Below the pieces are notes generated by a model. That model was not told the DNA's origin and ran no database searches. It saw only the letters and a list, made by a program, of their open reading frames with translations. 64,000 nt of DNA from Thozetella sp. PMI_491 (taxonomy: Eukaryota > Ascomycota > Sordariomycetes > Chaetosphaeriales > Chaetosphaeriaceae), in NCBI GenBank assembly GCA_021432635.1, contig MU270097.1:62001-126000 (forward strand), written 5' to 3'. Each line of letters starts with the position of its first letter. The stretch's first letter is position 1. Made by a program: the position numbers and the translations under genes. Of this stretch, positions 16,989 through 19,968 are shown piece after piece.

Positions 16989-17999
16989 ATGAAATTTACC
17001 TCGTCTCTCATTACGGTGGGAGCAATTCTCATCGCTAGTGCCTCCCTATCCTTCTCTCGGGCGCTTCCCGGTGTCTCCTCAGTTGCGGTCAGCTCTTTTG
17101 AAGATATACCTAACTGCCTCGATGGATTATGCGTCCTTGATAGGTCTGAACCTCTGAAGGTTCGTGCCGGAACTTCTTCTGGTGCCGGTGCCGCCGCAGG
17201 TGAGGCCGCCGGTTCCAGAGTCCCGCCGCCAGTGGTACCCGCTCCTGAAGTAGTGGGAGGACCTGGGGCTGGTACCAGACGACCCGGTCCCGACGACCCA
17301 CAAGCCCCCAAGAGTCCCAGGCCCATCGCCGCACCCGCACCGGAACCAGTGGCAGGGCCGGCTGCCGAGGAGGGTTCAACCGTGCAATCCTGGGTCCGGC
17401 CGCCGGGGCTCGACGGTCCTGTGGAATCGCAATTCTGGACGGACACGACGAGTCGCATAGCCAGCCCGGACTTCAATTCTATCAAACCAAATGAAGGGAC
17501 GGCCTTGTATACTGGTAAAGCTGCCTGGACCGACGTGGAAGATTTTGGAACAGAATTAGGAACGGCTCTGGGCAGACCGATCCGACATTACCTCAACACC
17601 GTAAAATCCGATCCACAACTCCAGGGGATGATTAAATCGTACGACGATAACCCAGCTGGGCAGGGATGGACCTTACCAAACGGTGTTGCATCTTTAGAGC
17701 TTGTATCGATGGCAAGAGAGATACCCAACGACGTGCATGTCCTCTTCAACACTCCAGAGGAGGCTGCAGCGGCAGCTGAGAGGGGCGAGATACCCAAAGG
17801 CCATCTGAAATACTTCGAAATGCACGCCATTACCAGCGAGAGTACTAAGGTCCCAAGAGTTTTGGCATGGGATGCCGAGACCTGGAGAGGGAATCTTGGC
17901 AACAAGGATTACCAACCGCCGGTGATCTGGACAAATGGGCAGCCGCCATTGGGATTACCCGCTGATTTCACCACGAACTCTCGCGCAAGAACAGATTAA
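16989..17999 (+). CDS. Secreted protein with ADP-ribosyl-cyclase/CD38-like C-terminal domain
   Basis: Single-exon product of 336 aa, starting at the ATG at 16989 because a signal peptide follows directly (MKFTSSLITVGAILIASAS). A short Cys pair (NCLDGLC) comes next, then a Pro/Ala/Gly linker (about 65-135). The C-terminal domain has no exact family I can name, but its layout follows CD38/ADP-ribosyl cyclase. ALYTGK (about 171) stands where CD38 has FWSG. GRPIRHYL takes the place of the TLEDTLLGYL helix. A Trp precedes a helix that ends in NDVHVLFN (about 248), which matches DVVHVMLN. YFEMHAIT (about 275) matches SVEVHNL, whose Glu is catalytic in CD38, and RVLAWDAE matches LEAWVI. If right, it would process NAD outside the cell. 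CD38's disulfides are not conserved. Confidence 0.6.
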   Translation: MKFTSSLITVGAILIASASLSFSRALPGVSSVAVSSFEDIPNCLDGLCVLDRSEPLKVRAGTSSGAGAAAGEAAGSRVPPPVVPAPEVVGGPGAGTRRPGPDDPQAPKSPRPIAAPAPEPVAGPAAEEGSTVQSWVRPPGLDGPVESQFWTDTTSRIASPDFNSIKPNEGTALYTGKAAWTDVEDFGTELGTALGRPIRHYLNTVKSDPQLQGMIKSYDDNPAGQGWTLPNGVASLELVSMAREIPNDVHVLFNTPEEAAAAAERGEIPKGHLKYFEMHAITSESTKVPRVLAWDAETWRGNLGNKDYQPPVIWTNGQPPLGLPADFTTNSRARTD

Positions 18000-18857
18000 T
18001 CTGGTCTGAAGGCATGAAGGATGGCCGAGTAACTGGGACTTCGAGCCCTCCTCCGGCTGTTACAGGGAGGGAGTCAGGAAGTCGAAGTTCCGGTCAATCT
18101 CTTTGCAAAGATCTCTATGTTGTTTTCCTTGTACTGACTCCCTACGTTTCCATATTTCTGTCGTTATCGTCTCGGTATTCTGTTTACTGTGGCTTCCAAC
18201 CTACGCTCGTTACTTCCTAAACTCAAATGCAATGATGCTCTTCAGCGGCTCTCCTCTCTCTATGCTTCAATTTGAATGTTCGCTTCCGCAGCCTAAAAAA
18301 AATGGGTGTTCACAAACTAGGAGTCAGAAGAACCCTCCTCCTCCTACCCTCAATACTAACAGGCACAGTCAACACGAGAGCGCCGCTTCTACCAATCAAA
18401 TCTAGGGTTAGGGTTAGCGTATACTCAGTATAAGATACAAGGTAAACCCTCGGGGCTTCTGTTCAAGCATACCTCTAGGCAACGTGGCTAAGTCAAGTGC
18501 TATTGGGGTGGGTTTCAATGACCGGGACTTCTACTCCTACTCCGGCCGGTACTGGGGGAGGCACAGCATCTCCTACTGTTTTCAATCCCCCCGCCAGAAA
18601 GTGTGGTGCTAAAGTGCTGAAGATGTCTATGATGGCGCTTAAGGGTTTTATAGCTGCTGCTACTTGTAAATGGTTAGAAACACTTCGCGAGTTGCCTCGA
18701 GACATTAGAGAACCCCTCTATTTAATGCCATCCAGGCTGCCATGCAGCGTATCTATAGAAGAGAGCCCTTAGGTAGGTATACATGCTATCATACCTACAC
18801 GATGATCCGAACTCCTTTTTTGTTGTAAACTCCGTAAGTTCCCAACTTCCCTGGCTT
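18000..18857. other. Intergenic with short open frames
   Basis: A telomere-type repeat lies at 18403-18417. Overlapping short frames on both strands around 18493-18772 (70 and 91 codons) have Gly/Pro/Val-rich composition but no signal, domain or splice support, so neither is called. Confidence 0.4.
18403..18417. repeat. Short interstitial telomere-type repeat
   Basis: TAGGGTTAGGGTTAG, just over two copies of TTAGGG, the telomere unit of most filamentous fungi. Too short to be a telomere. Confidence 0.6.
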
Positions 18858-19968
18858 TCAAAGCAATGCCGAGACCAAAAATACAATTCCAGTAGCGAAT
18901 AAGACAGTAGAGAGATTCCGAGGACCTGTCCTCGCGGAGCCACCAAGAAGAACGCTTGGGTCTGGGACTGTGCCTAACGATGCTGCAGGCCCAGCCGGTG
19001 CGCCAGAGACGCCCGGGGGAGCTGGGGGACCCATACCTGGGCCAGGAGGTGTGGGTGGTCCAGGCTGGCCAGACTGCGCCGCTGGAGCAGGCCCAGCAGG
19101 GCCACCCGCGGCAGCAGCAGGCCCCGCAGCAGCGGCAGGGCCGGGAGCAGGACCAAGACCTGCTGCAGGACCGGCTGCGGGGCCGGATGCAGGGCCAGAA
19201 GGTGCAGCAGGGCCCGGACCGGAAGCTGCGGCAGCTGCTGGGGCTGGCGGTCCAGCACCGGGCCCAGCACCGGGCCCAGAACTTTGACCAGCAGCAACTG
19301 GCGTGGCCTGCACAGTGACCCCTGCGACCAGGGACGTTGCTTGAGAAGAATATGTAGTCGCTGGGAAGGCACAACGGTTCATAATGGCGTTGACATTTTC
19401 TGCGCGTGGGGCGTTAGAGCTGAATTTTCCCGGGTGACGGCCAGGACTTACCACTTCTCCCTCCCTGCTGGCTGATGCAGCTCCCACAGTTGGCCATCAC
19501 AGCGGGGACGTCGAAACTGCGGTTTGGACATATACATTGGGCTTGTGCATCTCGGCGTACTGCTCGAATCGCCGCAGACCGCTTGGCCGACTTCCCCTGC
19601 GGCCCCGCCCCGGGACCATCAGCAGGACCAGCCGGCCCCTGCGCTGCGGCATCTGGGCCTCGGCTGGGTTGTTGGGCAGCCGCACCAGGGGACCCGGAGT
19701 TGTTCTTCTTCCCTGGTCGATCGGCAGCCGCGGGACCGGCGGCATTCTGGCCGGCCCCTGGGGCGCCGGGCCCTGCGACGACACTCGCGGCAGGTGCTGT
19801 TTGTGGCCCGTTGCACGCAGCGACGAGCTGTACTACTGGCTGGCAGATTGTTGAGCATGCCGCTGGGACTTCGCTGGCGTCGAAACGGAGGTTGTCGCCT
19901 TGCGCCACGGCGAAGGGCAGTGCGCCGGCGAGTGCGACCACCATCAAACCAGTTCTTGGTGAATGCAT
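18858..19968 (-). CDS. GPI-anchored Cys- and Pro/Ala/Gly-rich cell-surface protein, two exons
   Basis: Exons 19968-19452 and 19399-18858, with a 52-nt intron (GTAAGT donor, CTCTAACG branch, CGCAG end), give 352 aa. The parts in order are: signal peptide (LMVVALAGALPFAVAQG); a Cys module split by a low-complexity insert (AACSTICQPV, VAACNG, then QCICPNRSFDV, ANCGSC and MNRCAF, eight Cys in all); a long Pro/Ala/Gly segment in exon 2; and a hydrophobic end (STVLFATGIVFLVSALL) after a small-residue site (GGSA), typical of a GPI signal. The Cys pattern recalls CFEM-type surface proteins but does not match CFEM exactly. The 3' AG at 19420 would make a 32-nt intron, so the later acceptor is preferred. 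It is likely a cell-wall or membrane surface protein. Confidence 0.85.

What the first reader, a model, noticed from the sequence alone, without database searches (positions are those of the whole stretch)
16989..17999. Secreted protein with a CD38/ADP-ribosyl-cyclase-like domain
Seen: signal peptide, Pro/Ala/Gly linker, then a domain whose ordered motifs follow CD38: YTG for FWSG, a Trp-led helix ending NDVHVLFN for DVVHVMLN, YFEMHAIT for SVEVHNL, and RVLAWD for LEAWV. Known: in CD38 the Glu in SVEVHNL and two Trp residues form the NAD site. Inference: a secreted fungal NAD-processing enzyme, with the Glu kept. The TLED helix and the disulfides are not conserved, so activity could differ.
Basis: partly seen in the sequence, partly recalled or inferred. 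Interest (0 to 1): 0.72.

Follow-up and report, generated by a model that had tools for sequence, protein, structure and literature searches.

The report
Secreted fungal protein, CD38 likeness unproven
The gene looks like a real secreted fungal protein, but its resemblance to the NAD-consuming enzyme CD38 is barely above chance and the supposed catalytic residue does not clearly line up with that family.

Summary
The ORF (16989-17999 +, 336 aa) is real and single copy: hydrophobic start, two-Cys segment, 60% Pro/Ala/Gly linker, ~200-aa domain. The CD38 reading is not established. Pfam, NCBIfam and PADLOC give nothing; PDB and PHROGs only chance-level hits. Against 14 bacterial ADP-ribosyl-cyclase (ARC) domains plus Aplysia cyclase, nine left-out members score z 7-17 on a block model, the target 0.8-1.1. 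A looser model made afterwards gives z 2.1 (54/2000 shuffles), or 3.0 (10/2000) with a second gene of the same genome added. Alignments disagree on which Glu would be catalytic (E277 or E267) and both score badly; the Ser found in all collected members is not in register. Two structure predictions failed (pLDDT 32, 33), so the fold is untested. The second gene, a 257-aa ORF on contig C32, carries a far clearer ARC block (0/1000), though fungal ARCs were reported in 2012. Best reading: an orphan secreted protein (0.55); a very divergent ARC relative remains possible (0.33).

The parts
16989..17999 (+). ORF, 336 aa plus TAA stop, no intron needed
   Evidence: best codon log-odds of six frames; only itself found in the 72-Mb assembly at E<=10
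16989..17060 (+). putative signal peptide, residues 1-24 (boundary approximate, by eye)
   Evidence: hydropathy peak 2.4 over 12 residues from residue 7; no dedicated predictor available
17061..17168 (+). short segment, residues 25-60, holding the only two Cys (C43, C48)
17169..17384 (+). Pro/Ala/Gly-rich linker, residues 61-132
   Evidence: 60% P+A+G
17385..17996 (+). C-terminal domain, residues 133-336, family unknown
   Evidence: no Pfam/NCBIfam/PADLOC family at E<=10; PHROGs only phrog_773 at E 0.21; PDB best E 0.23, unrelated
17502..17519 (+). ALYTGK, residues 172-177: the one N-terminal stretch resembling the ARC [FL][WY][ST]G motif
   Evidence: 8.0 bits; 26/500 shuffles have a block as good; compare ALYSG in bacterial ARC L121
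17682..17753 (+).
   Evidence: -7.4 bits on the ARC block, an ordinary value (shuffle best mean -6.1); invariant Ser column is Leu and Trp column is Ala in this register
17787..17789 (+). Glu267 (GEIP), the Glu that MAFFT and the alignment to P0003 pair with the catalytic Glu
   Evidence: alignments A3 and A5; -25.8 bits in the rigid block
17817..17819 (+).
   Evidence: hhalign pairs it with the ARC Glu at probability below 1%; -19.6 and -8.2 bits in the blocks
17919..17939 (+). PVIWTNG, residues 311-317: resembles the last ARC strand (VIFTRG) and LIWQRG of the second fungal gene
   Evidence: 6.0 bits without and 10.2 with that gene in the model

Best explanation
A lineage-restricted secreted protein of a filamentous fungus. 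Inferred working: the signal peptide sends it out of the cell; residues 25-60 (with one possible disulfide, C43-C48) and a flexible Pro/Ala/Gly linker hold apart a C-terminal cargo domain of about 200 residues that acts outside the fungus, most likely as an effector-like or competition protein. The CD38 motif order is a resemblance that the sequence evidence does not raise to homology. Shown: ORF, hydrophobic start, linker, single copy, no match in the libraries and collections searched. Inferred: secretion, extracellular role, effector-like function, lineage restriction (no fungal collection was available).
For: No family or meaningful PDB hit; scans that reach close relatives only found none in the prokaryote genome collection or viral contigs, and tblastn none in phages and only E 0.6 and 5 in plasmids; single copy in its own genome. 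ARC profile HMMs rank it 172 of 1002, 57 of 1088, and 544 of 1552, 165 of 1622 and 288 of 1423 reported rows from 2002 sequences; hhalign probability 0.2-0.5%. Rigid ARC block model: z 0.8-1.1, and 16 of 146 window ORF pieces score as high, while nine left-out ARCs, Aplysia included, reach z 7.2-16.8. The same Pfam search finds PF02267 in 7 of the 10 bacterial ARC domains given to it but nothing in the target.
Against: The looser block model, with variable spacing around the Glu and the last strand added, gives 54/2000 shuffles, or 10/2000 with the second fungal gene included, and 0 of 146 window ORF pieces score as high. Target against that gene: 55/2000 and 148/2000, 9/2000 to 1340/2000 over ten settings, tail alone 151/20000 locally. 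Effector-like function is a guess from architecture alone.
Confidence: 0.55

Rival explanations
1. A very divergent fungal member of the Tox-ARC/CD38 superfamily, distant paralogue of the C32 gene (P0003), derived from bacterial polymorphic-toxin ARC domains. It would bind NAD(P) outside the cell and either hydrolyse it with a rearranged site or be an inactive relative, since the Ser and one Trp are not in register and the Glu is uncertain.
For: Looser block model z 2.1 without and 3.0 with P0003, above all 146 ORF pieces; ALYTG block 26/500, with Tyr at the Trp position also in 4 of 15 collected ARCs; PVIWTNG like VIFTRG; ordered VLF..PE, E[IF]P, D...W and P.[VL]IW..G before PPL shared with P0003, at 9/2000 and 17/2000 shuffles in the two loose local settings and 10/2000 and 40/2000 in the loose global ones; P0003 itself fits the ARC model (0/1000; 0/2000). 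Fungal ARCs were reported (PMC3482391, passages read).
Against: Rigid model z 0.8-1.1; the best path of neither model carries a Glu; the Ser present in 15 of 15 collected rows is absent in the ungapped register; other target-P0003 settings give 45, 122, 135, 620, 670 and 1340 of 2000, and the tail end to end 5053/20000; mature N-termini are not convincingly alike (135/5000 to 4081/5000 over 12 settings); target against CD38 or Aplysia at chance in most settings.
Confidence: 0.33
2. A different NAD- or nucleotide-acting secreted domain, for instance a divergent ADP-ribosyltransferase-like or TNT-like (AfNADase) fold, with ARC likeness coincidental.
For: Secreted TNT-type NADases exist in fungi (PMC7955114, passages read), and toxin-derived domains diverge fast (general knowledge).
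Against: No family at all at E<=10 in Pfam or NCBIfam; no motif of those folds was seen by eye.
Confidence: 0.07
3. The C-terminal part is not a folded enzyme domain at all but a structural or disordered secreted or cell-wall segment.
For: No confident structure in two predictions; a neighbouring gene also codes a P/A/G-rich protein (by eye).
Against: Residues 133-336 have ordinary composition (26% P+A+G, 26 acidic and 18 basic residues); low pLDDT without an alignment is expected for an orphan.
Confidence: 0.05

Closest known systems
ADP-ribosyl cyclase family (PF02267; CD38, BST1, Aplysia cyclase)
   Different: No profile hit and no robust pairwise hit; no TLED helix; only two Cys, both before the linker; Ser and one Trp not in register; catalytic Glu not fixed.
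Tox-ARC polymorphic toxin domains (Tac1, PDB 9OUF; ARCtox, PDB 9RO8)
   Same: ALYTG resembles the [FL][WY][ST]G start (ALYSG in L121); PVIWTNG resembles the last strand VIFTRG.
   Different: No delivery module seen in the protein; z 0.8-3.0 against z 6-17 for left-out members. An Imm74-like partner was not searched for in this genome.
P0003, 257-aa secreted-looking ORF, G000:C32:150474-151244 of the same genome
   Same: Hydrophobic start (by eye), intronless, ordered SRI, TG.A, VLF..PE, D...W and P.[VL]IW..G..PPL-like stretches.
   Different: P0003 carries a clear ARC block (SIWTRVEFPALSNNPNVEKVYRVDP) that the target lacks; no long P/A/G linker by eye.
Fungal surface NADases (AfNADase, TNT domain)
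   Same: Secreted fungal protein; the known precedent for NAD cleavage outside the fungal cell (PMC7955114, passages).
   Different: No TNT domain found in the target.

Membership tests
ADP-ribosyl cyclase (PF02267 / Tox-ARC) | Profile-level sequence match | tested here: not met
   Pfam none at E<=10; PF02267 in own genome 0 matches, though no control genome rang; HMM ranks 172/1002 and 57/1088, hhalign <=0.5%; positive control: 7 of 10 bacterial ARC domains hit PF02267 (121)
ADP-ribosyl cyclase (PF02267 / Tox-ARC) | [FL][WY][ST]G stretch at the first NAD-binding aromatic | tested here: inconclusive
   ALYTG, 8.0 bits, 26/500 shuffles as good; Trp replaced by Tyr, as in 4 of 15 collected rows
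ADP-ribosyl cyclase (PF02267 / Tox-ARC) | TLE helix Glu (CD38 Glu146) | tested here: not met
   no TLE motif by inspection; this Glu is also missing in ARC-like L100 (inspection) and in Nac1 (PMC12356396, passage)
ADP-ribosyl cyclase (PF02267 / Tox-ARC) | Invariant Ser in the second helix (S in 15 of 15 collected rows, by my anchors) | tested here: not met
   Leu in the ungapped register; a gapped hhalign path pairs Ser with Ser at probability 0.45%
ADP-ribosyl cyclase (PF02267 / Tox-ARC) | Catalytic Glu in E-[LFY]-P context (CD38 Glu226) | tested here: inconclusive
   hhalign pairs E277, MAFFT and the P0003 alignment pair E267; both score badly (E277 -19.6 and -8.2, E267 -25.8 bits) and the best model paths hold no Glu there
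ADP-ribosyl cyclase (PF02267 / Tox-ARC) | ARC two-lobe fold | tested here: inconclusive
   AlphaFold2 pLDDT 31.6 and 33.1, no usable model, no fold search run
ADP-ribosyl cyclase (PF02267 / Tox-ARC) | NAD(P) cleavage or cyclisation | not testable with these tools
   needs purified protein
Fungal TNT-type NADase (AfNADase) | TNT domain | tested here: not met
   no Pfam family at E<=10
Secreted fungal protein | N-terminal signal peptide | tested here: met
   hydropathy peak 2.4 over 12 residues from residue 7; a simple test only, no predictor

The most novel reading that the evidence does not exclude
This genome holds a small set of secreted proteins descended from a bacterial Tox-ARC toxin domain: one (C32 gene) with the ELP-type catalytic block still readable, and one (the target) in which the first Trp, the Ser and the Glu context have eroded, turning a CD38-like NAD enzyme into an altered or non-catalytic secreted protein.
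Probability: 0.22. Interest if true: 0.45.

Novelty: new member of a known kind. Interest (0 to 1): 0.17.

Why it matters
If it were an ARC relative it would add a secreted fungal branch to the family that links bacterial competition toxins to human CD38, with a chance to see how the active site decays. As it stands it is one more orphan secreted fungal protein. The C32 gene found on the way is the better candidate for a fungal ARC.

Tried and rejected
Single-sequence AlphaFold2 of the domain and of target plus one ARC row: both too poor to search; no fold search was run. Only one distinct homologue row (L126; L127 matches the same query at 100%) came from the sources that the structure tool names, so rows from plasmids and whole genomes were left out of the job. 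In that two-row alignment (A5) ALYTG and FWSG were not paired, so the job was a weak test from the start.

Seed hunting that led nowhere: plasmid hits H1, H2 and H3, H4, of which H2-H4 were read; Imm74 in 369 genomes of the class of a Pantoea (1 of 369; a neighbouring toxin-like ORF not ARC by eye, 41-42); viral contigs with five further queries (none) and one with two loci. PF02267 in 394 genomes of the order of that Pantoea (4 of 394 at E<=0.05) gave one ARC-bearing genome (L095, L098); L094, L096 and L097 looked like noise by eye. Of 19 plasmid records with an L100-like domain I fetched 8; L111 was a fragment and was not used. L101, L102 and L123 looked ARC-like but were not used. L115, L117 and L118 of the own genome looked unrelated.

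The first block model had a rigid Glu block, which a short deletion breaks, so I rebuilt it with flexible spacing and a fifth block. This was a post hoc change made after seeing the target; both results are given. Anchors in both models were set by me, and 9 of 15 rows were left out in turn (the six close ones, L105-L110, were not). The 146 decoy pieces are six-frame ORF pieces of the window, many of them not genes. Alignment settings differ widely in outcome; the ranges are given. MAFFT paired ALYTG's Gly with the ARC Gly in 80 of 84 runs, row L122 apart, but in none did E277's column hold the ARC Glu across the rows.

P0003 was picked from a 72-Mb genome for its ARC block (E 0.305, E 0.394), so its 0/1000 is not corrected for that search; its PDB hits 9OUF and 9RO8 rest on the same stretch; a model of the Tyr-type ARCs plus L124 and Aplysia ranks it only 7th of 1423 reported rows, and its second block scores -12.7 (130).

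Full report
What is there. The window lies in a 72.3-Mb assembly of 157 contigs (G000:C83:62001-126000). The ORF at 16989-17999 (+) codes 336 residues without an intron. Its frame has the best codon score of the six, though near zero. The N-terminus is hydrophobic, residues 61-132 are 60% Pro+Ala+Gly, there are only two Cys (43, 48), and residues 133-336 have ordinary composition. Only the gene itself is found in the genome at E<=10.

Does any library know it? No Pfam, NCBIfam or PADLOC family at E<=10; in PHROGs only phrog_773 at E 0.21 (112); in PDB only two unrelated chains at E 0.23 and 0.32 (6). Scans for close relatives found none in genome contigs (47 pattern stretches, none confirmed) or viral contigs (3 stretches, none confirmed); tblastn found none in phages and only E 0.6 and 5 in plasmids. 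PF02267 found nothing in the own genome, though no control genome rang either, so that search alone does not show absence. No fungal collection was available, so absence of fungal homologues is not shown.

Building a yardstick. Zhang et al. 2012 (PMC3482391, passages read) list Tox-ARC in bacteria, animals and fungi (ascomycota, basidiomycota), with the conserved pattern '[ST] [DE], S, E' and partner Imm74. Tac1 (PMC12356396, passages) loses activity without Glu573, its equivalent of CD38 Glu226; ARCtox (PMC12605009, part 1 of 7 and passages) loses it without any of two Glu and two Trp. Through a distant PF02267 match (L095, E 0.015), whose two best PDB hits are those two ARC toxins (E 0.018 and 0.23), I reached 14 bacterial ARC domains: L095, L100, L103-L110, L112, L121, L122, L124. 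Four of them (L105-L108) sit beside annotated Imm74 genes (58-61). Of ten given to Pfam, seven hit PF02267 and nothing else, and three (L103, L121, L122) hit nothing; L095 hit PF02267 at E 0.0017 and one other family weakly.

Target against ARC. A profile HMM of 11 bacterial ARCs plus Aplysia ranks the target 172nd among 1002 sequences, 1000 of them its own shuffles; a model of P0003 plus ten bacterial ARCs ranks it 57th of 1088; three further models rank it 544th, 165th and 288th among the rows reported from 2002 sequences. hhalign gives probability 0.2-0.5%, although its forced path does pair ALYTG, the Trp, a Ser, E277 and VIW with FWSG, the Trp, the Ser, the ELP Glu and VIF. Against 12 single ARC sequences the best is 9/300 shuffles (L095); of six true controls five reach 0/300, and L103 against L109 gives 10/300 (74). 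In a three-block ordered model, nine left-out ARCs give z 7.2-16.8, P0003 6.8 (0/1000), the target 0.8 (202/1000) or, with P0003 in the model, 1.1 (128/1000), and 16 of 146 window ORF pieces score as high as the target. A five-block model with flexible spacing, made afterwards, gives left-out ARCs z 6.0-12.4, P0003 5.5 (0/2000), the target 2.1 (54/2000) or 3.0 (10/2000), and none of the 146 pieces equals the target. So there is a weak signal, carried by ALYTGK and PVIWTNG. The catalytic part does not carry it: the best paths hold no Glu in the Glu column, E277 scores -8.2 there, the Ser found in 15 of 15 rows is Leu, and the Trp column (Trp in 11 of 15) is Ala in the ungapped register. Alignments disagree on the Glu: hhalign takes E277, MAFFT and the pairwise alignment to P0003 take E267.

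To Aplysia cyclase there is nothing (185/1000 to 834/1000), whereas CD38 and Aplysia recognise each other at z 18-37. A true relative should match what the family conserves, not mainly what one member has; this counts against kinship with CD38 in particular.

Structure. Both AlphaFold2 runs (single sequence; with one bacterial row) had no residue above pLDDT 70. They say nothing about the fold.

A second gene. Searching the fungal genome with bacterial ARCs L109 and L105 gave one place each, the same (E 0.305 and 0.394): G000:C32:150474-151244, a 257-aa intronless ORF (P0003) with a hydrophobic N-terminus by eye and SIWTRVEFPALSNNPNVEKVYRVDP, close to the bacterial VWETTEFPALKANPNVTKI. Its best two PDB matches are the ARC toxins 9OUF and 9RO8, at E 0.029 and 0.23; Pfam gives nothing. 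It was chosen for this block and only that block is strong (its helix block scores -12.7), so the evidence is good, not final. Target and P0003 share ordered short stretches; whole-domain counts are 55/2000 and 148/2000 (79) and 9/2000 to 1340/2000 over ten settings, the tail alone 151/20000 locally but 5053/20000 end to end, with 9 of 1430 ORF windows (the target's own among them) scoring as high, and the mature N-termini are not convincingly alike. They may be distant paralogues; it is not shown.

Surroundings. Of 86 window ORFs of at least 150 codons I gave 20 to Pfam; above cut-off were Abhydrolase_3, 2EXR, Pro-kumamolisin, Rxt3, LCCL, DUF7907, NmrA, GH28, Abhydrolase_1, CAP and an L-PSP domain among others, below it a zinc cluster and a bZIP. 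Nothing in these points to an immunity partner or to extracellular NAD turnover.

Verdict. A real, secreted-looking orphan protein; the CD38 likeness is weak and the 'Glu kept' claim is not borne out. I put about 0.55 on an unrelated orphan domain, 0.33 on a very divergent ARC relative and 0.12 on other readings.

Noticed in passing
G000:C32:150474-151244 (+), L113:949-1719, outside the window: 257-aa intronless, secreted-looking ORF with an ARC-type block (SIWTRVEFPALSNNPNVEKVYRVDP); 0/1000 shuffles on an ARC block model from which it was left out. Better candidate for a fungal ARC than the target; its first-motif Trp is Leu.
   Followed up: partly
   Followed up: partly
L103, L104, L121, L122: Bacterial ARC-like domains with Tyr (or Leu, by my anchor, in L122) instead of the first NAD-binding Trp (LLYGG, FYSG, ALYSG, LLYG); three of the four (L103, L121, L122) ring no Pfam family, a possible separate ARC branch.
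   Followed up: no
L093:2056-2697: An Imm74 match (L092) lies near a toxin-like ORF that by eye is not an ARC; whether the two are partners was not tested.
   Followed up: no
window 18858-19968 (-): Two neighbouring ORFs that may be one split gene: Cys-rich secreted-looking N-terminus, very Pro/Ala/Gly-rich middle and hydrophobic tail, like a GPI-anchored cell-wall protein; no Pfam family.
   Followed up: no
window 18403-18417: Short interstitial telomere-like stretch TAGGGTTAGGGTTAG (by eye); TTAGGGTTAGGG has no exact match in the window.
   Followed up: no
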